The notes under the pieces are model-generated. The model was not told the origin of the DNA. It was given only the letters and a program-made list of their open reading frames with translations, and made no database searches. Shown one piece after another: positions 1,655-41,970 of a stretch of 54,320 nucleotides of DNA (positions are counted from its first letter, which is position 1; each line of letters opens with the position of its first letter). A program made the translations under genes and the position numbers. This DNA comes from a virus. The stretch spans positions 1-54,320 of the IMG/VR virus record IMGVR_UViG_3300037041_002188; one strand, written 5' to 3'.

Positions 1655-4600
1655 ATGGCAAAAGAAACTGATGAAATAGATGTATTTAGTCCTTATGATA
1701 TATTTGAAAACCTAAAAAAGAATAATCTCGACCCCTCTATTTTTGATACTATTGATGAAAGAGATTTCCCCAAGGCACCTAACTTTCTTGAGTTCGCTAT
1801 CGGGCCGCAATTTCTTAACACCTTAATACTACCAAAGCAGGTAGAGATTGGTACTAAATTATTCTGTGATTACTGCCCAAGGTGTTCTAAAGAAGGTTAT
1901 GTTGATAGATTATTCGATCAATCCGTAGGTAATATCAAAGACAACATAGTATTTTTAGAACATGGGGTATGTCCTAAGTGTAAGGTTAATCGCTTTGAAT
2001 TAATTAAATCAAAAGAATTAATCTTTCGGAATGAACTTGTTGGCGTGGCTGGTCAGAGATGTATTCCTAAAGATTCTTTAGTAAATACAAAGCGTGGTGT
2101 TCTTAATTTAAAGGATGTTGTTGTTGGCGACAGTTTGACACATGGGGGTGTTAGTAATTATTTTGAGTCGGGTATGTTACCTTCTCTTCGGCTGAGAACT
2201 AAATATAATTATACTTTAACAGGAGCTAAAGATTCTCATATTGTACCCGTCCTAAAGGTTAGAGATACCACTAAAAGATACACAGAAAAAACTAAATGGA
2301 AAGCTGAATTATATGTAGAAGATAAGCACATAAAAGATTGTGTTGTCGGTGATACTCTCTTATTACATATGGCTGATATGTGGCCCTCTGAACGCTATCA
2401 ATTACCCCTATATACTTTCACTAGGACTAATGCACACTGTAACAATTATAATACTTTTGATTTTCCAACAGAGGTTACCCCTGAACTTGCCCGTATATTA
2501 GGTTATGTAATAGCTAATGGTGAATGCACGAGAAAATATAATATCAGAGTTATGCTAAGTAACGATGAGACAAAGAAAGATTTTATCAGATGTTGTAACG
2601 CTGTATTTGGTAGAGATCCTTCAATAGATAGTGATAGAGAAACGTGTACTTCTTATTCTATTAATGGTATATCTGCGGTACAGTGGTTAACGCAAGTCGT
2701 TGGTTTATGTGTTGAAAAATCTAGGAATAAATCTGTTCCTACATGTATTATGCAATCACCTAAAGAGATTATATGTGACTTTTTAATGGCTCTTTTTGAA
2801 TGCGATGGCAACATCTACCATGAAAAAAATAGTGTGTCTATTCGAATCCAGTATGCCTCTGTTTCAAAAAAGTTGATTTATCAAGTACGTTTGTTATTAC
2901 TTAATATGGGTATTGTGACTAGATGTGAGAAATACCAAACTGTTGGTTTTAAACAAAACAATATTTATACCGATGATGTTGAAGAAGGTAAGGAAGGTTA
3001 TTCATTATCTACAAAAAATGCTGAATTTGTCAGAAGGTTTTCAAATTTAATAAAGTTTGTAAGTAAGCAAAAAGTAGATATTCTGTCCAGTATTGTAGCT
3101 ACTGGCAGATTTTGTTTTCATACTCCTGTCGGAGACTTTTTATACAAGTCATTTGATAAATGGAATCCATTATTAAAAGAGTTATATCTAAAAGGGTATT
3201 TCCCTGTTCCAATAGAACATATTGAAGATGGTCCTGATATGGAGATGGCAGATGTCAGCATACCAGATACTAATCTTTATACTGCTGATGGATTTGTCCA
3301 TCACAATTCAGGTAAAACTAAATTAGTAGGATTACTTGCCGCATATGTTAACCATAGATTCCTTAAGATACCTAGTCCTATTAGAACATTTAATCAGACT
3401 TCAGGTGATATGTTAGCAGGTACCTTTTCTGCTCTTTCTGCGGACCATAGCTTTAGAAACCTCTGGCAAGCCTTTAAGGGTTTCATGGATGGCTCCCCTT
3501 GGTTCCAGAACTACCATCGCTTTATTAAAGGTGAAGAAAAAAGATTAGGTGTAGAATTACTTCATGAATTAAAAGCATCTATTTTTTATGGTCACAAGCA
3601 TCTCATGTGGTCTGCTACTGGATCACAAGATAGAAAGATGCGTGGAGATACTCGTATTTTTGCTGCAATCGATGAGCTTGGTTGGATGATTTCAGATGAA
3701 CAAAAAGCTGATCTTCAAAACATGAATGCAGATGCTATCTATACCGCACTATCTAACTCATTAACAACTATGAGAACTAAATTTAATAGAGTTTACAATG
3801 CTGAAAACTTTGATCTACCACCTATATTCATGTGCAACATTTCATCACCTAGTTCAGTAAAAGATAAGATTATGCGCCTTAGTAAAGAGGCTAAGAGAAA
3901 TGATCGCATTTTTGCTATCCAGTGTGCCTCTTGGGAGATGAACCCTGACTATACCTACGAGGCTCTAAGAGAAGAGATGTCCCATATTGATGAGCTAACC
4001 TTTGCTCGTGACTTCGGGGCTGAACCACCTTTAGCATCAAACCCATTTATTCCAGAGCCTCGTCTTATTGATAAGATCGCTACGGGGGAACCCTTTACTA
4101 GCTTTACATGTACAGAATATCAAGAGAAGGATTTTCTTGGTGACTATTTCAAATCTGTGAAATTAAATATTTTGAAACCCGACAAGAATATCCCACGTCT
4201 AGTCTCTTTTGACTTAGGTAGTATGAAAAACTCTTTAGCAGTTTGTTTATTTTCATTAACTCCTGATTTAAAGCCTAAACTTGAGTTTGCTTTTGCAGTA
4301 AGACCTACTAATAAAATTAGAGCCAATATAGCTAAATTTTTTGAAGATTTTACAGTGACTCTAGTGACACACTTCTCTATCAAACATGCATTCTTTGATC
4401 GCTGGCAATCCTTAGATCAAATTGAAAGACTCAAAGGTATGGGTGTCAACGCTCAAGTACATAGTGTAACCTATAAAGAAATGGATTCAATAAGAGGTTC
4501 TATTTTATCCCAAAGCATAGTTATGCCTAAATTAGAACACACGATGGACAAATATGTACGGGAGTATATAGAAGATATTCAGCATATTGATGCACTTGCT

Positions 4601-4900
4601 TTACTTGGGTTACAGTTTTTAACTGTAAGGGATATGGGCCATAAAATGGCTAAACCTTTACTTGGTGATGACGATGTTTTCAGAGCTTTTGTTTTAGGGG
4701 CTACGATGCTATCAGATCCTAAAGTAAAAGAAGAATATTTAAAACAAGGCGTGGAGATCAAAACGGGTCAAACTGTAGCATACTTGGGTACGGTCAGGTT
4801 ACGTTCTGCTGGTGGGGGTATGGGTGCAGGGGGAGCTATTGAGGGTGAAAAGGGTAAGATGCTTGGAACAATAAAATCTCGTAGGGGAATGGGGAAATAA
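1655..4900 (+). CDS. terL: Terminase large subunit with intein
   Basis: This is the DNA-packaging motor ATPase/nuclease. It has 1081 residues including an intein of about 416, leaving a mature protein of about 665. The Walker A loop is split: GVAGQR lies before the intein and SGKT after it, giving GVAGQRSGKT once spliced. Walker B follows as IFAAIDELGW. The C-terminal RNase H-like nuclease shows RLVSFDLGS and HAFFDRW, supplying likely metal-binding Asp residues, and IDALALLGL further on. The N-terminus (about 70-110) has CDYCPRC and CPKC pairs, probably a zinc-binding insert. The tail is Gly-rich. The ATG at 1655 follows a GGTGG site. The gene abuts the next small gene (2 nt gap), and the portal follows two genes later, the usual packaging order. 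The assignment is firm. Confidence 0.95.
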   Translation: MAKETDEIDVFSPYDIFENLKKNNLDPSIFDTIDERDFPKAPNFLEFAIGPQFLNTLILPKQVEIGTKLFCDYCPRCSKEGYVDRLFDQSVGNIKDNIVFLEHGVCPKCKVNRFELIKSKELIFRNELVGVAGQRCIPKDSLVNTKRGVLNLKDVVVGDSLTHGGVSNYFESGMLPSLRLRTKYNYTLTGAKDSHIVPVLKVRDTTKRYTEKTKWKAELYVEDKHIKDCVVGDTLLLHMADMWPSERYQLPLYTFTRTNAHCNNYNTFDFPTEVTPELARILGYVIANGECTRKYNIRVMLSNDETKKDFIRCCNAVFGRDPSIDSDRETCTSYSINGISAVQWLTQVVGLCVEKSRNKSVPTCIMQSPKEIICDFLMALFECDGNIYHEKNSVSIRIQYASVSKKLIYQVRLLLLNMGIVTRCEKYQTVGFKQNNIYTDDVEEGKEGYSLSTKNAEFVRRFSNLIKFVSKQKVDILSSIVATGRFCFHTPVGDFLYKSFDKWNPLLKELYLKGYFPVPIEHIEDGPDMEMADVSIPDTNLYTADGFVHHNSGKTKLVGLLAAYVNHRFLKIPSPIRTFNQTSGDMLAGTFSALSADHSFRNLWQAFKGFMDGSPWFQNYHRFIKGEEKRLGVELLHELKASIFYGHKHLMWSATGSQDRKMRGDTRIFAAIDELGWMISDEQKADLQNMNADAIYTALSNSLTTMRTKFNRVYNAENFDLPPIFMCNISSPSSVKDKIMRLSKEAKRNDRIFAIQCASWEMNPDYTYEALREEMSHIDELTFARDFGAEPPLASNPFIPEPRLIDKIATGEPFTSFTCTEYQEKDFLGDYFKSVKLNILKPDKNIPRLVSFDLGSMKNSLAVCLFSLTPDLKPKLEFAFAVRPTNKIRANIAKFFEDFTVTLVTHFSIKHAFFDRWQSLDQIERLKGMGVNAQVHSVTYKEMDSIRGSILSQSIVMPKLEHTMDKYVREYIEDIQHIDALALLGLQFLTVRDMGHKMAKPLLGDDDVFRAFVLGATMLSDPKVKEEYLKQGVEIKTGQTVAYLGTVRLRSAGGGMGAGGAIEGEKGKMLGTIKSRRGMGK
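2060..3307 (+). mobile_element. Intein with LAGLIDADG endonuclease domain in terL
   Basis: An in-frame protein-splicing element occupies terL residues 136-551. It begins with Cys (CIPKDSLV, block A), has a block B-like TGAKDSHIV, and ends with NLYTADGFVHHN followed by Ser (+1 extein residue) of the P-loop. Cys1, the terminal His-Asn and Ser+1 are all present, so splicing should work. The middle holds two LAGLIDADG-type motifs, LARILGYVIANGECTR and FLMALFECDGNI. In the first the usual catalytic acid is Asn (residue 288); the second keeps Asp (residue 384). That suggests weakened or nicking-only endonuclease activity. Insertion at a conserved ATPase loop is typical of inteins. Confidence 0.93.
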
Positions 4901-34359: not shown

Positions 34360-34680
34360 TCAACACACAAGGGATTTTTCTATGAAAATATCGACTTTTT
34401 CTTTTGTTTGGTTCCCTACTAAAGTATCAACAGGTTCGCCTTCTTTGAAAAATATCAAATATGGGATTGATCTAATACCAAAATTAGAGGCTACTGTTGT
34501 CTGTTCATCTACATTGCATTTAGCTATAACTACTTCCTCACCATACTCCTCTTCAATATTTTCAAGGGTGTGAAGCATCTGTAGACAAGGGCCGCACCAT
34601 TCGGCCCAAAAATCGACTAGTACAGGGGATTTACTTTTCAGTACAACTTCTTCAAAATTTTCATCAGTCACTTCTAACAT
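34360..34680 (-). CDS. Thioredoxin
   Basis: A 106-residue thioredoxin with the full active site FWAEWCGPC, cis-Pro loop IRSIPYLIFF and standard length. It reduces disulfides; in phages it may serve ribonucleotide reductase or bind a DNA polymerase, as in T7, though no partner is evident. I start at 34680 because GGAG lies 9 nt upstream; the frame continues into the mannanase gene. Confidence 0.92.
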   Translation of the reverse strand: MLEVTDENFEEVVLKSKSPVLVDFWAEWCGPCLQMLHTLENIEEEYGEEVVIAKCNVDEQTTVASNFGIRSIPYLIFFKEGEPVDTLVGNQTKEKVDIFIEKSLVC

Positions 34681-34717
34681 ATGTTTAACTCCATAGTTCA
34701 AAAAAAAGTATTCAAAA

Positions 34718-35803
34718 CTATGGATAAGATAACTGTGCTCCAATTTTTTCTATCGACAGCTTTTTCAAATTGTCACACATGGTAGTAAACTCTGGACACC
34801 ATACAGTGAACCCATCATAATCAGGGTATAGTGATCCATCCATTTGCTTACCACTTAGTATCCAAAGTAGCATACCACTTACATTATTTTGGTTTGCTAG
34901 TGAATACCAGTTAGTAAATATTTCATTTCTTTTTAGTCTATCCTTTAGGCCATACTCACCCAAAAAAACGGGTTTGTTTAGACTTTTAGCTACTTGTGCA
35001 TGTTTAACAATATATTCGTTTGCTTGCTGCTCATTAAATCCCCACCAGTCGGGATACAAATGAAATGAAACAACATCAATATTTTTTGACTTATGAGCTT
35101 CAAAAGGATCACTGTCGATAGCTCCCTCAGAACCAGTTGTCACTAGGTGATTCGTATCTATTGTTTTTATATACCCTGACATCTCATCAATCCAGTTGTA
35201 AAGAGCGTACTTGTCTCCGCATCTAGGCTCATTCATCAACTCCCACATCAGTATGGTAGGCTCGTCCTTATACGCAACACCTGTGTAAGTATTTACCCTA
35301 TTCAAAACATATTTCACATAGTCTCTGTAAATACTTTTCATATCTTCATCTCGGAAGAAATCGTCGTGGTTATATTTTTTTGTCCATGATAAGTATTGAT
35401 TGATCCCACCAAAATCACCCCAGTTGTTTGCTAGTGCAAGTACAAGTTTGATATTTTCTTTTTTAGCTTTGTATATAACGTAGTCTAATTTTTTAAAGGT
35501 TGGTTCATCATATTTTCTAGCTTCTGGTTGAAAACAAAAGCCATCATGCATACCACCATCACAAAAAGCCCAAGTTCTTATTACATTCATATTCAAAGAT
35601 TTAGCATCCTCGAAAACTTCATCTACCATGGCTTGAGGTTTGTAAAAGAAATAGTATTGATTAGCACCCGAAAATTGAAATTCCTTATTGTCAATAATAA
35701 TTTTTTGGTCTTTTACTTGTGCAAACTCAATGCCGCAAGCGGTTTGCACAAAAAGTAGAAAGGTAAAGAGAGTGAAAAGAAAGATATTAGCTATAATCTT
35801 CAT
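34718..35803 (-). CDS. GH5-type mannanase-like glycoside hydrolase
   Basis: A 361-residue secreted glycoside hydrolase. MKIIANIFLFTLFTFLL is a signal segment ending near QTACG. The TIM-barrel signatures of GH5 clan A are present: FSGANQYYFFY, NVIRTWAFCDG, ILMWELMNEPRC (acid/base Glu), VSFHLYPDWWG, and VFLGEYGLK (nucleophile Glu). The pattern is closest, by eye, to endo-beta-1,4-mannanases. In a phage it may degrade a host or matrix polysaccharide, or be a metabolic gene taken from a host. I start at 35803, where GGTGGTG lies upstream, rather than at the ATG at 35815. Confidence 0.85.
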   Translation of the reverse strand: MKIIANIFLFTLFTFLLFVQTACGIEFAQVKDQKIIIDNKEFQFSGANQYYFFYKPQAMVDEVFEDAKSLNMNVIRTWAFCDGGMHDGFCFQPEARKYDEPTFKKLDYVIYKAKKENIKLVLALANNWGDFGGINQYLSWTKKYNHDDFFRDEDMKSIYRDYVKYVLNRVNTYTGVAYKDEPTILMWELMNEPRCGDKYALYNWIDEMSGYIKTIDTNHLVTTGSEGAIDSDPFEAHKSKNIDVVSFHLYPDWWGFNEQQANEYIVKHAQVAKSLNKPVFLGEYGLKDRLKRNEIFTNWYSLANQNNVSGMLLWILSGKQMDGSLYPDYDGFTVWCPEFTTMCDNLKKLSIEKIGAQLSYP

Positions 35804-35872
35804 ATGCACCACCATAATTGTTAAAGGAAAAACCTATTAACAAGTTAAGATGGTTTTTGTTTTGTAGCTTTA

Positions 35873-36652
35873 TTACTTTAATCGATGATATGACACAACA
35901 ACCATGAGAATTTTCATTTCATTATACGTAAGAAAATTACTTTTTATCTGATTACATGGGGTACAGCAAGAAACAGAATTCTCTATAGTATATCCTATAT
36001 TTTTCTCAGGGTTCTTTTTATCTAAACCATAACCCGTACCAATATTTTCAGTACCACAATAAGCGCAAGGTTGTGAAAGTAATTTATGATATTGTTCAAA
36101 ACTAATTTCAAGATTTATATTTTTGTCTTTTGATGCTCTAACCAATCTCCCCCATCGTTTTCTAACAGATGAACATTTTGTTACGTTGTGAAGGCTATAT
36201 AATTTGGTTACTTGTGGTATGCCCATTTCACCTTGTAGAATTGCGTGAAACATAAGTAGCTCTTCTGGTAATAGTAGATCTCTTTTTACCGTGTTGCATC
36301 TGAGGCAGCAAGGAACGCAGTTCTGTTTAGAATACCCTTTTGAAGAATCAAGGCGATCTATATTAGGTGCGGTTAAAGATAGGTCTATTTTACAGTAATG
36401 ACATTTATTCGTTGAACGGATTTCTATAAAATCAGCTAACTCTATTTCAAAGGGAACATTTGCTACCTTGGCTCTTCTTTTTAGGTAAGTATATTGTCTT
36501 GTGGGAAGTGTAGCTAAACTTTTTATCCGTTGTTTTTCACGCTCCCTATGCTTCGCATAGTGTTTTTTATTGCGCTTTCTATTTGCAATTTTACCCTTGT
36601 CTGTTTGAGCGTATAATTTTTTCCTTTCTCTAATTTTGTCATCAGTGGTCAT
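35873..36652 (-). CDS. Double-HNH endonuclease-like protein
   Basis: A 259-residue basic protein with two HNH-like zinc modules. The first is CHYCKIDLS ... IDRLDSSKGYSKQNCVPCC followed by RCNTVKRDL (about 85-135); the second is CAYCGTENIG ... ENSVSCCTPCNQIKSN (about 195-240). The usual first His is replaced by a D-R-L-D type motif in module 1. A Lys/Arg-rich helix forms the N-terminus. The ATG overlaps the stop of the ParB-like gene (ATGA), placing it in the IbrA/IbrB cassette. A longer relative is at 40288..41970. Confidence 0.75.
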   Translation of the reverse strand: MTTDDKIRERKKLYAQTDKGKIANRKRNKKHYAKHREREKQRIKSLATLPTRQYTYLKRRAKVANVPFEIELADFIEIRSTNKCHYCKIDLSLTAPNIDRLDSSKGYSKQNCVPCCLRCNTVKRDLLLPEELLMFHAILQGEMGIPQVTKLYSLHNVTKCSSVRKRWGRLVRASKDKNINLEISFEQYHKLLSQPCAYCGTENIGTGYGLDKKNPEKNIGYTIENSVSCCTPCNQIKSNFLTYNEMKILMVVVSYHRLK

Positions 36653-37143
36653 TCCCAAGATTTACTATACTCCCTGTCCTTAAATATTTCTGGTAATCCT
36701 GTAGCTTGCTTTAATCGCAATACTTCATCAGCATCCATTCCTAGATGTTTAGCGATCTCAGCATCATCCCATCCCTGTTTAAAAAGGCTTGCTACAATAT
36801 CGACCATGGGTTCAATGCCATGTTTACCTCTGGCTCTATTATGCCTTATGGTAGAAGCAATTCTTTCTTTCAGAGGCTTATCAATTACTACAATAGGTAT
36901 CTCAGGTAGTTTAAATAGTTCTTTCGCACAGCGATATCTATGAAAGCCATCCACTATGATGTACTTATCATTAACATCGTCGTAATAGCATACGACTGGC
37001 TGAGTAAAACCATCTTCTTCAATGGAGTGTTGCAGTAGTTTAAATTCGGGCGGTGCTACTGTGTTGGGGTTATAACTGTTTGCGATGACTTTTGTGATGT
37101 CTACCATCTTCACATCAAGAACAGGGAAGGTTATTTTCTTCAT
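36649..37143 (-). CDS. ibrB: ParB-like nuclease-domain protein, IbrB type
   Basis: A 164-residue protein with a clear ParB/sulfiredoxin domain: VIANSYNPNTVAPPE, DGFTQPVVCYY, YIIVDGFHRYRCAKEL (nucleotide-binding turn), then RHNRARGKHGIEPM. The C-terminus contains a helix-turn-helix (DAEIAKHLGMDADEVLRLKQ) and ends in EYSKSWE, as I recall for IbrB proteins. IbrB is the usual partner of IbrA. Both its start and stop overlap neighbours by 4 nt, indicating tight coupling. The enzymatic activity of the pair is not established. Confidence 0.85.
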   Translation of the reverse strand: MKKITFPVLDVKMVDITKVIANSYNPNTVAPPEFKLLQHSIEEDGFTQPVVCYYDDVNDKYIIVDGFHRYRCAKELFKLPEIPIVVIDKPLKERIASTIRHNRARGKHGIEPMVDIVASLFKQGWDDAEIAKHLGMDADEVLRLKQATGLPEIFKDREYSKSWE

Positions 37144-37619
37144 TCGTTCACTTTCTTAACCAAGTTGTAGTAACCACGTTGACCGTAAATAACAAAGCCA
37201 TTTTTTTTGTAAAGATGCATACTCCTATCATCCTTCACCATGGCCCGGAGTTCACCTTTATCTTTCAAATATTTTAACCTTGTGTTGAATAGTTTTGAAC
37301 CGCACCCCTTACCCTTATACTTATCAAGGACAAAAAATTGATTCAATAACACATGGCTTTTCTTTTTAAAAGCAGTACAGAAACCAGTAACCACATCACC
37401 CTCGAACATAACAAACCAGATGCTGTTAGGTTCGTTATACAAAGGTTCACCAAAAGTTTTGAAAAAAGTTTTATCAGCAAAAAATGGCCCCATTAATCCA
37501 TAAAATGATTTTGTTTGTTGCGCTTCAGTATAAATTTTTATTTCCATAGAGAGTTCTCCATCATTATTACTACAGGCATCGGATTTTTCTACCGTTTCTT
37601 GAATACTATCTGTAATCAT
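37140..37619 (-). CDS. GNAT acetyltransferase
   Basis: A 159-residue protein. The acetyl-CoA site is FFVLDKYKGKGCGSKLF (Q/RxxGxG/A-like), followed by MHLYKKNGFVIYG, the typical C-terminal GNAT block. The substrate is unknown. Start at 37619 overlaps the IbrA stop (ATGA); an internal ATG at 37547 with GGAG upstream is an alternative that would drop a poorly conserved leader. It is wedged between IbrA and IbrB, so it probably works with them. Confidence 0.82.
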   Translation of the reverse strand: MITDSIQETVEKSDACSNNDGELSMEIKIYTEAQQTKSFYGLMGPFFADKTFFKTFGEPLYNEPNSIWFVMFEGDVVTGFCTAFKKKSHVLLNQFFVLDKYKGKGCGSKLFNTRLKYLKDKGELRAMVKDDRSMHLYKKNGFVIYGQRGYYNLVKKVNE

Positions 37620-38863
37620 TTGATTTTATAACCTTCTAATAAATCATTTATGGCTTTATCTGTTCGTTTAGATTCTGCAAATCCGTATTTTTTACACATC
37701 CAATCTCTTTTGATGATGAAGTTCGCCATGGTTTCCCATGACCCTACGTATGCTATTGAGATATTATTATTGGCAGCAAATTCTTTAGCCTCTTTTCGAG
37801 TATCGAACCACCACTGCTTCAGTCCTAATTTATCTCTACTGTAGACTTCAAACCATCTTATAATAACATTGAATCGATATCGATAGTTTACTTGAGCTTC
37901 TGGTGGGAGTGAATCTAATAATAGCCATGTGAATTGTTCCCATGTACTATTTTTAGGTTTTTTTGTTCTCAGTGTGTTCAAATTTGTGTCGTTATACAAG
38001 GCACCAAAATTTGCACCCTCTACTCTATCAACTAAACGATGCCATGTCTCAGGCTCTATCTCATGCCATTGACCAAGATCTTTTTTCTGAACCTCACCAA
38101 GAGCATTACATATTCGCATCTCATGCAAAGTTTTTCCAGCTAGGTAGAACTTATCGTAGGTTTTGTTATAATCCCAACCATGCTTACCTGTCGCTGTCCA
38201 GATATCTTCTACTTGCCAGTCATAGATAGGTAAAGACACCCATGTCTTAATACCGCTATCTTTTGTTCGATAACACCATTTTGTTAACTTGTCTCTATTT
38301 TTCTCAGTCGCAATTAACATGTGCCGACCATAAGATTCATCGGTTCGTAAACCCAAAATACTAGCTATTTTATCAACACCCTTTTTTTCAGCTAACCAGT
38401 CTCCAAATTTTTTCACAACCCATAAGCTATATGAATTTTGAGAGTACCACTCTTTCCATGCCTCTGGTAAATTGTCCTCGTTTATGACACAAGGGTACTC
38501 AGGCATAGGTCTAACCCATTTATCCTTCTTAGCCTTATCCCAAGGCTTCCAGTACCGTTCAAAGACGCTAGAGCCATTATCTTCAGCTTCTGGTAGGCAT
38601 ATCCAATAAGGTTCAACTTCTTTTCGAAACATTTGTCTCTCAACAAAGTTAATTGTTTCCTTATAGCAAGTCTCCCAGTCAAAAAACATAACAGGGACAG
38701 GTAGCTTATTTTTAACCGTAGCCCTCTCAATAAATAGCTGCAAGGCAACACCGCTATCTTTTCCACCGCTGAAGCAAACAAAGAAAGCAGGGAAGTTATC
38801 AAGAATATAATCTACTCTTTCAACAGCAGCTTCATAAACATTTTTATTAATATACTTCTTCAT
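37616..38863 (-). CDS. ibrA: PAPS-reductase-family protein, IbrA type
   Basis: A 415-residue protein of the PP-loop ATPase/PAPS-reductase family. FFVCFSGGKDSGVALQL (residues 27-43) is the PP-loop; FFDWETCYKET, LGLRTDESYGRHML and VSLPIYDWQVEDIW are typical of the family. The C-terminus (YRYRFNVIIRWFEVY and GSWETMANFIIKRDWMCKKY) matches what I recall of the DUF3440 part of IbrA. IbrA/IbrB pairs occur in prophages and are known as regulators in E. coli, with unknown biochemistry; related PP-loop enzymes put sulfur into DNA or tRNA. It is first in a four-gene overlapping cassette. Confidence 0.88.
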   Translation of the reverse strand: MKKYINKNVYEAAVERVDYILDNFPAFFVCFSGGKDSGVALQLFIERATVKNKLPVPVMFFDWETCYKETINFVERQMFRKEVEPYWICLPEAEDNGSSVFERYWKPWDKAKKDKWVRPMPEYPCVINEDNLPEAWKEWYSQNSYSLWVVKKFGDWLAEKKGVDKIASILGLRTDESYGRHMLIATEKNRDKLTKWCYRTKDSGIKTWVSLPIYDWQVEDIWTATGKHGWDYNKTYDKFYLAGKTLHEMRICNALGEVQKKDLGQWHEIEPETWHRLVDRVEGANFGALYNDTNLNTLRTKKPKNSTWEQFTWLLLDSLPPEAQVNYRYRFNVIIRWFEVYSRDKLGLKQWWFDTRKEAKEFAANNNISIAYVGSWETMANFIIKRDWMCKKYGFAESKRTDKAINDLLEGYKIK

Positions 38864-39035
38864 TTTATGTCTTTATATTATAAACAATAACATTTGATGT
38901 TTTATTATATTTTAGGCATAATGTCAATTTGGTTTTGTGGGCAAGGTCTGGTGAAAGAATATTAGCACTACTTGGAAAATATTTTCTTAAATGATATTTT
39001 TTGCCGTTAGGTAATTTTATTTTTAGGAGTATGTA

Positions 39036-39392
39036 ATGGATAAAGAATTTTTGATAAAAGATATGGCAAACATAATCACAACATGGGCCTATCGTAATTC
39101 AAGTATAGAATCTTTACATAGCGGCACATTTCCTACCTCGAAGGTTGGGGATTTTTCAGATGTTAAAGTAGTCTCTCCCTTTGGAGAGATTCCGTGGAAT
39201 TCGTTAAGTAGGATATCTGATGAAGAGATGAAGAAATTGAATAAGGAGATACATAATAGAATATACACATTTCTTCATCAGATTTTTATAAAAAATGATC
39301 CCTTTTCCATAGGGAGACTATCTGCATCATCTGAATGGGAAGAGCCTACCATCGATGCAGAACTTTTTAACTACTTGAATAAAAAAACGTAG
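39036..39392 (+). CDS. Hypothetical protein
   Basis: A 118-residue acidic helical protein without recognised motif. TAGGAG lies about 7 nt before the ATG. It is followed 12 nt later by a homing-type nuclease gene. Confidence 0.68.
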   Translation: MDKEFLIKDMANIITTWAYRNSSIESLHSGTFPTSKVGDFSDVKVVSPFGEIPWNSLSRISDEEMKKLNKEIHNRIYTFLHQIFIKNDPFSIGRLSASSEWEEPTIDAELFNYLNKKT

Positions 39393-39404: not shown

Positions 39405-40346
39405 ATGTCACCGATAGGTATTGAAAATTTCCTAATTGAATTAGGCACTAAATCAAAAGATGATCTTCAGTTACTCTATGATGCTGCCATCCTATCCAGT
39501 AGAAAACAATATAATACTAGCAGTGGGGCAAAATCGTTATGCCTCTCGAAAGGGTATAGCTCTAGCAAAGAAGATTTACAAAAGGTTAGGCTGTTTTTAT
39601 TTGGTGTCGGTGTCGTTTTGAAAGTAGGTGACCGGCAGTGTGTTGACCCTAGTACCAAACAAAAAAAATCCAAAAGACAAAGAGAACTCAGATCCCTTGA
39701 AACTGATGGCATCCGAGTAGCTAAGATAACCCACACAATCGCAAATAAATCTAAAGATGAGATGGAGAGAATTCGAACTAAACAAAAAAAATCCTTAAAA
39801 GAAACTTTGTCAATCAAAATGGCTGACAAGTCTACTTGGGATTCTAACCAAAATCAGTATCAGCATAAAGCTAAACTAGCACGAGCTTCTATGACTCAAG
39901 AGGACCATGAGAGAAGTATTGCAAAGTGGAAAGAAACCTACTGGGCTAAATCAGATGAAGAGAGACATAGCATTTTTATCAAAAAAGAAAAGTCTAACAA
40001 CATTGGTTTCTGGTTAGATGGTATCTGGTTCGGTTCTGGTTTCGAATTGAACATGTTTATTTTCCTCACTAGGTTAGGTATCAAATTTGTTTTCCAAGGG
40101 CTTACCTGTAATTTAAATGGCTATACATGGCACCCAGACTTCTACCTTCCTGACCATAATTTGATACTGGAAGTTAAAGGAGCACACCTTAAATCTAAAA
40201 AGTATTGGTTAGAGAAAACCTTGCCAAAGATACAAGAAGTAAAATTGTGGAACACATATGCTATAAGAGTATGTTGGGAAAGAAAAATTAAAGTTGAAAC
40301 TCTAGCTGAGTTGTTAGACTTGTGCGAAGTGGTGGGGATTGAGTAA
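39405..40346 (+). CDS. PD-(D/E)xK homing endonuclease-like protein
   Basis: A 313-residue protein. The C-terminal 120 residues form a PD-(D/E)xK nuclease core: WFGSGFELNMFIFL (helix with Glu), WHPDFYLPDHN (Asp) and LILEVKGAH (ExK). This arrangement is typical of free-standing phage homing endonucleases and Vsr-like enzymes. The N-terminal 190 residues are basic and helical, with repeated Lys/Gln-rich stretches, and may recognise DNA. Its last 59 nt overlap the convergent double-HNH gene. Confidence 0.78.
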   Translation: MSPIGIENFLIELGTKSKDDLQLLYDAAILSSRKQYNTSSGAKSLCLSKGYSSSKEDLQKVRLFLFGVGVVLKVGDRQCVDPSTKQKKSKRQRELRSLETDGIRVAKITHTIANKSKDEMERIRTKQKKSLKETLSIKMADKSTWDSNQNQYQHKAKLARASMTQEDHERSIAKWKETYWAKSDEERHSIFIKKEKSNNIGFWLDGIWFGSGFELNMFIFLTRLGIKFVFQGLTCNLNGYTWHPDFYLPDHNLILEVKGAHLKSKKYWLEKTLPKIQEVKLWNTYAIRVCWERKIKVETLAELLDLCEVVGIE

Positions 40347-41970
40347 CACAGGCACACGTATTGTCTCTAAACCATCTATATTGACGGGTATGTGTTTTCC
40401 CATGTTCACATATCGCTATTAACTTGCTATCCTTATTTTGGTATTCTCCTGATACATATACCCATCCATTGCTTGATAGTCGTTCTTTAAAGGCATCAAA
40501 TTTATTTGAAAGCCCTTCACATGCTGGACAATTTGGGAACTGTCTAATCCTTTCACACGTTCTTTTAAATAGGTGTCCTTTACTGCACGTTATAACTAAT
40601 TCTTTATGCTTTCGAGGGTTTATATATTCTTCAAAAGTAGATATCAAAACCATGTGACGAGATTCTATAATTTGTTTATATGAGTCGTAGGTTTTCCAAC
40701 TGCCATCAGGCATCTTCTTTTTAGGGCGTGGGGTTTTTGTTCTATTAAGAACAGAGTCATAATAATTTTTGTATATCTCCTCAATGTCTAGTAAGCCATT
40801 ATAGTACGCATTTTTCCCATCAAATTCTTTTTTGTAATGCTCACCGCAAAGATAGGTATCGCTATCAGGGTTCTTAATCCATTTTGTACTTTCATGTACG
40901 CCGCAGACAGCACACACTTTTTCACAATTTTGTGTGTTGAAGATTCTTATTTTTTGGATAGCATTTGCAATAGCTAACATTTCCTCAAAACTAAAAATAT
41001 CAGCTTTAATTTTATTGCACACAGGGCAACATGGCACACAGTTATCAAAATGGTAGTCAATTTTGTTATCTAGTCGATCTAACCCAGAAGGTATGCCCCC
41101 ACAATAGAAACAAGATGTTTTTAGTAGAACCTCAAAATCTTTTCTCTCTATCGAGATTTCAATACCACGGATTCGATTGGTAGCTACAAAGTGTGTGAAT
41201 TTTTCACTAGGGGTTAGTTTAGGTACTGTTGGATTTAAACTAAATTCGATTTTGTCGGGGATTACTTTATATAGGTGGTATTTTTTTAATGCTAGTACAG
41301 CAAAGAAAGTTTCTTCTTCGGTAAGGTACACACCTTTTAGATAATTACAAATATGGCAACATGGTACAGAGTTCTCATTATCATAGGCTCTTGTGTTATT
41401 ATCAAGCCTATCAAGACAGGTTCCAGTTTCTTCTAGCTCTCTACCACAGTAATGACATGGCTGACTTCTTTTTAATTTATATTCTTCGAGGGTGAGCAAA
41501 ACCTGTGCATTTCTTCTTTTGGCGTTGGACTTTAAGTAAGAAAATTGGTTTTCTACATACGTTCGGCTTAGTTTGTTAGTTTCTTTGTATGCTGCTTCAT
41601 TATTTTTATAATGCTCTGCGTGGTACTTTTTATTATCTTCTCTTATTTTTTCGACATTTTTATTATTGTACCGTTGTTTAGCTTCTTTTGCTTTTTGTTT
41701 TTCTTCTTCAGTCCATTCACTACGTGGCTTTCTTTTTCTGACATAACCTTCAGAACGTCTTTTTTTATCCGCTTCTTTGTTTCTTTCATTTACAGCGTTT
41801 CGGTACTCTACATCTTCCTGATATTTCTTTTTTCGGGCTTCATTAACATCTTCTTTATTTTTTTCATGGTATTGTTTCAAATATGTTTTTTTACATATCT
41901 GACCCTTTGGCGTGTTGTACCATTTTGGTGAATCGTGCATCGTGTTGCAGATTGTGCAAAAATTTTCCAT
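40288..41970 (-). CDS. Long double-HNH protein with extra zinc modules
   Basis: A 560-residue protein. Residues about 55-150 are highly basic and helical. Two HNH-like modules follow: CHYCGRELEETGTCLDRLDN ... ENSVPCCHICNYLKG and CFYCGGIPSGLDRLDN ... FDNCVPCCPVCNKIKAD. Then come further Cys clusters (CAVCGVHES with YLCGEHY; CSKGHLF with CPACEG), and a C-terminal domain like those that follow CxxxHxF repeats in phage nucleases. It is a longer relative of the protein at 35873..36652. Probably a mobile or DNA-processing nuclease. Confidence 0.78.
   Translation of the reverse strand: MENFCTICNTMHDSPKWYNTPKGQICKKTYLKQYHEKNKEDVNEARKKKYQEDVEYRNAVNERNKEADKKRRSEGYVRKRKPRSEWTEEEKQKAKEAKQRYNNKNVEKIREDNKKYHAEHYKNNEAAYKETNKLSRTYVENQFSYLKSNAKRRNAQVLLTLEEYKLKRSQPCHYCGRELEETGTCLDRLDNNTRAYDNENSVPCCHICNYLKGVYLTEEETFFAVLALKKYHLYKVIPDKIEFSLNPTVPKLTPSEKFTHFVATNRIRGIEISIERKDFEVLLKTSCFYCGGIPSGLDRLDNKIDYHFDNCVPCCPVCNKIKADIFSFEEMLAIANAIQKIRIFNTQNCEKVCAVCGVHESTKWIKNPDSDTYLCGEHYKKEFDGKNAYYNGLLDIEEIYKNYYDSVLNRTKTPRPKKKMPDGSWKTYDSYKQIIESRHMVLISTFEEYINPRKHKELVITCSKGHLFKRTCERIRQFPNCPACEGLSNKFDAFKERLSSNGWVYVSGEYQNKDSKLIAICEHGKTHTRQYRWFRDNTCACVTQSPPLRTSLTTQLEFQL

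What the first reader, a model, noticed from the sequence alone, without database searches (positions are those of the whole stretch)
35873..38863. Four-gene overlapping cassette: IbrA, GNAT, IbrB/ParB and double HNH
Each junction is an ATGA overlap, so the four proteins are made together. IbrA/IbrB pairs are known but their chemistry is not. The added acetyltransferase and two-module HNH nuclease suggest a modify-and-cut or modify-and-protect system, for example a sulfur- or acyl-based change to DNA or RNA plus a nuclease. This is the best candidate here for an undescribed system.
Basis: partly seen in the sequence, partly recalled or inferred. Interest (0 to 1): 0.75.

Follow-up and report, generated by a model that had tools for sequence, protein, structure and literature searches.

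The report
Phage IbrA-acetyltransferase-IbrB gene module
This phage carries a three-gene set, an ATP-using enzyme (IbrA), an acetyltransferase and a DNA-binding ParB-like protein (IbrB), that recurs as a unit in many unrelated phages and bacteria and probably modifies nucleic acid, while the nuclease gene behind it looks like an unrelated passenger.

Summary
The four genes and three ATGA overlaps are real, but the four-gene cassette is not a unit. IbrA-GNAT-IbrB is a recurrent three-gene module; the HNH gene is a passenger. In 219 non-redundant IbrA+IbrB loci, the window's GNAT family is adjacent in 42, either between IbrA and IbrB or directly before IbrA. A generic GNAT model over 50 whole viral contigs placed 8 of 10 hits inside the pair. 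A profile built only from viral members found 23 GNATs in the 80 bacterial loci, all directly beside IbrAB. The GNAT label changes at least 15 times on the IbrA tree. Other loci carry instead an ectoine-synthase-like cupin (39 loci, 16 fused to IbrB) with small conserved proteins, or rarely a methyltransferase; GNAT and cupin never coincide (0 of 219). An SNF2-like helicase often lies upstream. No other IbrAB locus has an HNH gene next door, and the window HNH is a paralogue of another HNH gene 4 kb away. Best reading: IbrB docks on DNA, IbrA activates a target with ATP, the partner enzyme finishes the change. The chemistry is inferred; sulfur transfer is not supported. IbrAB is known; this partner-swapping organisation appears undescribed in the papers I could search.

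The parts
37616..38863 (-). IbrA: PP-loop ATPase of the PAPS-reductase/FAD-synthase fold with a C-terminal DUF3440 helical domain
   Evidence: Pfam DUF3440 4.7e-22, PAPS_reduct 8.5e-12; phrog_2302 5.9e-76; AlphaFold2 model pLDDT 92.4, nearest solved folds CysH, FAD synthase, CysD; SGGKDS, D62, E64, R173/E176/S177/R180, D215, D220, W222, R250, D387 essentially invariant in 219 loci
37140..37619 (-). GNAT acyltransferase of a family tied to IbrAB (N-terminal FYxxxGPxFA...W signature)
   Evidence: Acetyltransf_1 3.3e-11; AlphaFold2 model pLDDT 89, GNAT fold; family adjacent to IbrAB in 42 of 219 loci
36649..37143 (-). IbrB: short ParB-CTPase-fold protein (DGxHR, RHNRARGxH) followed by a helix-turn-helix-like region
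   Evidence: ParB_N 7.7e-9; phrog_2159 3.2e-65; profile matches solved ParB, Noc, SbnI and, weakly, free serine kinase; conservation in 219 loci
35873..36652 (-). Double HNH/endonuclease-VII-like nuclease; neighbour, judged NOT part of the module (ATG start; ORF extends to TTG 36658)
   Evidence: phrog_1035 9.2e-28; paralogue of 40288-41970 (28% over 261 aa, 3e-27) and absent from all other IbrAB loci
38864..39035 (.). Intergenic stretch upstream of IbrA, divergent from the + strand gene at 39036; presumed promoter region, no convincing minus-strand promoter match found

Best explanation
IbrA-GNAT-IbrB is a three-gene module, a variant of the IbrAB family in which a dedicated GNAT is the accessory enzyme. 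Proposed working: IbrB (NTP-binding ParB fold plus helix-turn-helix-like region) docks the complex on DNA; IbrA uses ATP to activate (adenylate) a group on the target, probably a base; the GNAT transfers an acyl group from acyl-CoA. In other loci an EctC-like cupin, or rarely a methyltransferase, takes the place of the GNAT, so the final mark would differ between phages. Expected use: protecting phage DNA or marking it for late transcription. Shown: gene content, conservation, repeated association, folds, intact motifs. Inferred: DNA as target, order of steps, identity of the mark, biological purpose. The HNH gene is a separate, probably mobile, endonuclease.
For: IbrA and IbrB lie together in 219 of 221 loci. 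GNAT family adjacent in 42 of 219 loci: 28 hits between, 15 upstream, 1 downstream. Generic PF00583 over 50 whole viral contigs (2.05 Mb): 8 of 10 hits are in the slot, P about 3e-8 for a 3-kb zone per contig. A profile from 13 viral GNATs (A3) found 23 GNATs in the 80 bacterial loci, all adjacent to IbrAB. In 14 GNAT-type genomes the member beside IbrAB scores 1e-28 to 1e-41 while every other GNAT in them is 1e-11 or weaker; 10 IbrAB genomes without it have nothing better than 1e-10 (members of the model are among the former). GNAT label needs 20 changes on the IbrA tree, at least 15 on well-supported branches. Alternative partners: EctC-like cupin in 39 loci, 16 fused to IbrB; methyltransferase in 2. 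SNF2-like helicase directly upstream of IbrA in 56; IbrB ends in a conserved helix-turn-helix-like region. Two viral loci hold IbrA-GNAT-IbrB within a type IV Csf-type operon (L094 by PADLOC; L107 by weaker similarity).
Against: No biochemistry exists for any IbrAB module in the papers searched. Some GNAT family members (for example L128, L043, L085 and the Bacteroidales set) appear to have lost the acetyl-CoA loop, so in part of the family the protein may be structural. About half of the loci (106 of 219) have none of the recognised accessories, so IbrAB can act alone. The SNF2 helicase is absent beside the window's IbrA. The known IbrAB phenotype is activation of prophage eib genes, not DNA modification.
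Confidence: 0.42

Rival explanations
1. IbrAB with its partner is a transcription co-activator or antiterminator of phage genes, acting on RNA polymerase or promoters without a covalent mark on nucleic acid; the GNAT tunes it by acetylating a protein.
For: ECOR-9 IbrAB is cited as activating prophage eib genes (reference 30 of PMC10434257); IbrB has a ParB fold plus helix-turn-helix-like end; GNAT fold nearest to protein acetyltransferases such as HP0935 and RimI.
Against: Does not explain an ATP-pyrophosphatase-type enzyme as the constant partner, nor interchange of GNAT with cupin and methyltransferase.
Confidence: 0.25
2. The module modifies a host or phage protein or a free small molecule rather than nucleic acid, for example an amino-acid derivative that is activated by IbrA and acylated by the GNAT.
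For: ParB-fold relatives SbnI and SerK phosphorylate free serine (weak profile matches); the alternative partner is ectoine-synthase-like, a small-molecule enzyme; nearest GNAT folds act on proteins or small molecules.
Against: IbrB carries a helix-turn-helix-like region and the neighbourhood is rich in DNA enzymes (helicases, nucleases). GNAT and cupin never co-occur, so there is no ectoine-like two-step path.
Confidence: 0.17
3. One reading: all four genes form one modify-and-cut or modify-and-protect system with the HNH as effector.
For: ATGA overlap between IbrB and HNH.
Against: HNH missing from every other IbrAB locus, including the nearest relatives L018/L092 and L093; HNH paralogue and another endonuclease-like gene close by; such overlaps are common in this genome.
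Confidence: 0.05
4. A sulfur-transfer system like Dnd or Ssp phosphorothioation, or tRNA thiolation.
For: IbrA fold is that of PAPS reductase; weak match to the DndC model (9.3e-6, 24.8 bits against a 290-bit cut-off).
Against: No invariant cysteine in IbrA (C89 87%, C390 85%) or IbrB; no Dnd or Ssp match among the cassette genes. FAD synthase shares the fold without sulfur chemistry.
Confidence: 0.07
5. Plain auxiliary metabolism: IbrA is a true PAPS reductase for sulfate assimilation.
For: Automatic annotation of phage homologues as PAPS reductase.
Against: Below every NCBIfam cysH cut-off, no invariant catalytic cysteine, near-obligate pairing with IbrB.
Confidence: 0.04

Closest known systems
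IbrA/IbrB of E. coli ECOR-9 (activators of prophage eib genes, Sandt 2002) and phage IbrAB pairs; E. coli YbdN/YbdM
   Same: Same two families, adjacent and co-oriented; about 210-228 phage and 584 plasmid records hold relatives
   Different: Window has a dedicated GNAT between the two genes; tblastn with three members of this GNAT family found none in the 50,697 phage records
IbrA-EctC-like cupin-IbrB loci (Pseudoalteromonas phage XCL1123; fused in Mycobacterium phage Gaia)
   Same: Same IbrA and IbrB with one enzyme in the same slot
   Different: Slot enzyme is an ectoine-synthase-like cupin, usually with one or two further small genes; never together with the GNAT
Type IV-B CRISPR ancillary CysH-like protein (CasCysH)
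   Same: PAPS-reductase fold, reported to lack the catalytic cysteine (PMC8175902); two viral loci combine Csf-type genes with IbrA-GNAT-IbrB
   Different: No Csf genes were seen beside the window's module; IbrA is a different, DUF3440-bearing family
Dnd/Ssp/type 4 BREX phosphorothioation (DndC, SspD, BrxP; with ParB-fold DndB)
   Same: Also pairs a PP-loop PAPS-reductase-like enzyme with a ParB-superfamily protein (PMC10853773, PMC12839542)
   Different: No partner genes, no conserved cysteine pair, far below family cut-offs

Membership tests
IbrAB (IbrA = phrog_2302/DUF3440, IbrB = phrog_2159) | PP-loop plus DUF3440 protein next to short ParB-fold protein | tested here: met
   strong matches, same operon, co-oriented, one gene between
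IbrAB (IbrA = phrog_2302/DUF3440, IbrB = phrog_2159) | Conserved motifs SGGKDS and GIRxxES in IbrA; DGxHR and RHNRARG in IbrB | tested here: met
   all present in the window proteins (GLRTDES variant)
IbrAB (IbrA = phrog_2302/DUF3440, IbrB = phrog_2159) | Activation of phage/prophage gene expression | not testable with these tools
   needs expression experiment
GNAT acyltransferase | GNAT fold with acyl-CoA loop | tested here: met
   Acetyltransf_1 43.9 bits, cut-off 20.7; model and Foldseek; loop YKGKGCG read in the sequence
Dnd/Ssp/BREX type 4 phosphorothioation | DndC/SspD/BrxP family membership and partner genes | tested here: not met
   DndC 24.8 bits against cut-off 290; PADLOC gives no Dnd/Ssp/BREX match for the cassette genes
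Dnd/Ssp/BREX type 4 phosphorothioation | Conserved catalytic cysteines | tested here: not met
   No invariant cysteine in 219 IbrA or IbrB
Canonical ParB partition protein | Full ParB family membership with ParA partner | tested here: inconclusive
   TIGR00180 32.1 bits against cut-off 58.45: not met; ParA not searched for in the window
PAPS reductase (CysH) | CysH family cut-off and catalytic cysteine | tested here: not met
   TIGR00434 25.6 bits against 165.1; no invariant cysteine
Ectoine pathway | EctA/EctC pair | tested here: not met
   No EctC-like ORF in the window; the GNAT gave no EctA match in NCBIfam
Free-standing homing-type HNH endonuclease (for the 35873-36652 gene) | Intact HNH modules, sporadic presence, paralogue in the same genome | tested here: met
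Free-standing homing-type HNH endonuclease (for the 35873-36652 gene) | Site-specific cleavage of the allele lacking the gene | not testable with these tools
   needs a cleavage assay; no near-identical phage without the gene was found

The most novel reading that the evidence does not exclude
IbrAB is the constant core of a widespread, undescribed nucleic-acid modification pathway of phages, plasmids and bacteria whose last step is swapped between an acyltransferase, an ectoine-synthase-like cupin and a methyltransferase, giving a family of new DNA or RNA marks; in two phages it is built into a type IV-B-like Csf operon.
Probability: 0.3. Interest if true: 0.82.

Novelty: new variant of a known kind. 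Interest (0 to 1): 0.52.

Why it matters
IbrAB pairs are widely annotated in phages, plasmids and bacteria and have no known biochemistry. Showing that they carry interchangeable, mutually exclusive partner enzymes (GNAT or EctC-like cupin) turns an old unknown into testable predictions: different partner, different product. The link of the same module to type IV-B-like Csf operons in two viral contigs may also bear on the open question of what the CysH-like protein does there.

Tried and rejected
HNH as fourth component: rejected on absence elsewhere and paralogy; the 0-of-19 adjacency count alone is weak. Sulfur chemistry: looked for invariant cysteines, none. Ectoine-like GNAT-then-EctC pathway: rejected because the two never co-occur in 219 loci; the Fisher p-value (1.8e-4) is inflated by shared ancestry, since the cupin set forms few clades (7 changes). 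First EctC count was wrong (seed pattern found nothing) and was redone. Scan of viral contigs with the GNAT alignment failed for lack of conserved stretches; with the single GNAT protein it gave one weak locus. Promoter scan gave no more matches than shuffles. No near relative of the phage in the phage collection. Not tested: ParA in the window, dN/dS, model-level geometry of C89 and C390.

Full report
OBSERVATION. The three junctions are ATGA overlaps; for the HNH this holds for the ATG at 36652, not the TTG at 36658 where the longest ORF begins. The overlap argument is weak by itself, since 6 of 45 same-strand junctions in this window are 4-nt overlaps and most spacings are short. The window is a 54,320-bp IMG/VR virus record of a tailed phage with terminase, portal, family A DNA polymerase, helicase and endolysin; no near relative is in the phage collection.

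THE PROTEINS. IbrA matches DUF3440 and PAPS_reduct and phrog_2302. Its AlphaFold2 model (mean pLDDT 92.4) is nearest to CysH, FAD synthase and CysD. Over 219 loci the PP-loop and a set of acidic, arginine and tryptophan positions are essentially invariant, but no cysteine is: C89 is 87% and C390 85%. So the fold allows ATP-dependent activation, while sulfur transfer is not supported. IbrB is a short ParB-fold protein (phrog_2159 3.2e-65) whose profile finds ParB, Noc, SbnI and weakly SerK among solved structures, with DGxHR and RHNRARGxH nearly invariant, a helix-turn-helix-like end around GMDxDExxRLKQ, and no conserved cysteine. The GNAT is a genuine GNAT fold.

THE GNAT BELONGS. I collected 221 non-redundant IbrA loci from phages, viral contigs and bacterial genomes; 219 also hold IbrB. 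A profile of 13 viral GNATs (A3) was run on all ORFs. Hits lie almost only in the slot between IbrA and IbrB or directly before IbrA, often with 4-nt overlaps; in the 80 bacterial loci all 23 hits are adjacent. After iteration 42 of 219 loci carry the GNAT. As a less biased test, the generic Pfam model PF00583 was run on 50 whole viral contigs totalling 2.05 Mb: 10 hits, of which 8 fall in the slot, one lies about 600 bp upstream of IbrA and one is distant; chance for 8 or more of 10 in a 3-kb zone per contig is about 3e-8 (positions converted by me from the contig ranges). In 14 bacterial genomes of the GNAT type there is one strong full-length member each and then only ordinary GNATs, and in 10 IbrAB genomes without it there is none (note the former are in the model). 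On a FastTree tree of 214 IbrA sequences the GNAT label needs 20 changes, at least 15 on well-supported branches, against 37 for shuffled labels. Repeated gain or loss next to the same pair is what functional coupling predicts. The window's nearest IbrA relatives, L018 (74% identical), L093 and L094, all have the GNAT.

ALTERNATIVE PARTNERS. Other loci have an ectoine-synthase-like cupin in the slot or fused to the N-terminus of IbrB (39 loci, 16 fusions), mostly together with a small conserved protein (my label AWIG) and a stand-alone copy of the IbrA C-terminal domain. Two loci have a methyltransferase there (L049, L050). GNAT and cupin never occur together (0 of 219). The p-value for this is inflated by shared ancestry, but it speaks against a sequential EctA-EctC-like pathway. 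106 loci have none of the three recognised accessories. An SNF2-like helicase is directly upstream of IbrA in 56 loci; the window lacks one next to IbrA.

THE HNH DOES NOT BELONG. None of the other IbrAB loci contains a relative of it, Pfam finds HNH among the 121 downstream neighbours effectively only for the window, and the closest loci L018/L092 and L093 have something else or nothing after IbrB. Generic HNH hits in 50 IbrAB contigs are never adjacent, 0 of 19, though chance alone gives that 24% of the time. The gene is a paralogue of the double-HNH gene at 40288-41970 (28% over 261 aa, 3e-27), and a further endonuclease-like gene lies at 39405-40346 (phrog_15137). Its other relatives sit in unrelated places, for example beside a PhoH-like gene in L171 (PhoH by my reading of the sequence). 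This fits a free-standing mobile endonuclease. IbrAB slots elsewhere also contain such invaders: GIY-YIG in L061 and an HNH in L060.

MECHANISM. Shown: a constant core of a PP-loop enzyme plus a ParB-fold protein with a DNA-binding-type end, and a dedicated, exchangeable third enzyme. Inferred: IbrB positions the complex on DNA, IbrA adenylates the target, the GNAT transfers an acyl group. The DNA target rests on the helix-turn-helix-like end of IbrB, the frequent SNF2 helicase and DNA-enzyme neighbourhoods, and the Csf association. It is not proven. The known phenotype of ECOR-9 IbrAB, activation of prophage eib genes (cited in PMC10434257), is compatible with either a DNA mark or direct transcriptional action, so that rival keeps substantial weight.

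KNOWN AND NEW. The IbrAB pair is known but its chemistry is not; searches of open papers found no description of the GNAT or cupin organisation, though most subscription journals and preprints were not searchable. A recent ParB-fold survey (PMC12704722) does not mention IbrB, cupin or ectoine. I therefore file this as a new variant of a known kind.

CAVEATS. The locus sample is the top of capped searches seeded partly by the window, so the fractions are not population frequencies. Members with degraded acyl-CoA loops (L128, L043, L085, Bacteroidales) suggest that part of the family may not be catalytic. The IbrA tree is FastTree quality with some long branches.

Noticed in passing
L094:3781-9393; L107:1-4616: IbrA-GNAT-IbrB sits inside type IV-B-like Csf operons on two unrelated viral contigs: L094 has Csf2 with a Cas11-like part, CysH-like, Csf3 and Csf1 (PADLOC); L107 has a Csf2-like piece upstream and Csf3-looking and CysH-like genes downstream.
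   Followed up: partly
L001:3607-3999, L002:3608-4507 and 37 other loci: Ectoine-synthase-like cupin between IbrA and IbrB or fused to IbrB, mostly with further small conserved proteins; a second type of IbrAB locus.
   Followed up: yes
window 40288-41970 and 39405-40346: A second double-HNH gene and a gene with weak matches to phage endonuclease families, close to the cassette; the region is rich in endonuclease genes.
   Followed up: partly
window 1655-4900: Terminase large subunit gene that appears to carry an intein: residues about 270-480 match intein-containing models, the rest terminase.
   Followed up: no
window 34718-35815 and 34360-34743: GH5 cellulase-family protein with an apparent signal peptide and a thioredoxin directly downstream of the cassette, next to a tRNA-Leu gene; unusual phage cargo.
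   Followed up: no
56 of 219 IbrAB loci, e.g. L092:3593-5017, L093:3517-4998: SNF2-like helicase gene directly upstream of and often overlapping IbrA; a possible further part of the wider IbrAB system.
   Followed up: partly
L061:4238-4990, L060:4459-4956: GIY-YIG and HNH (NUMOD-type) genes inserted between IbrA and IbrB, indicating that this locus is a target for mobile endonucleases.
   Followed up: no
L014:5705-6454: A second PAPS-reductase-like gene (BrxP model 7e-20) just after IbrAB.
   Followed up: no
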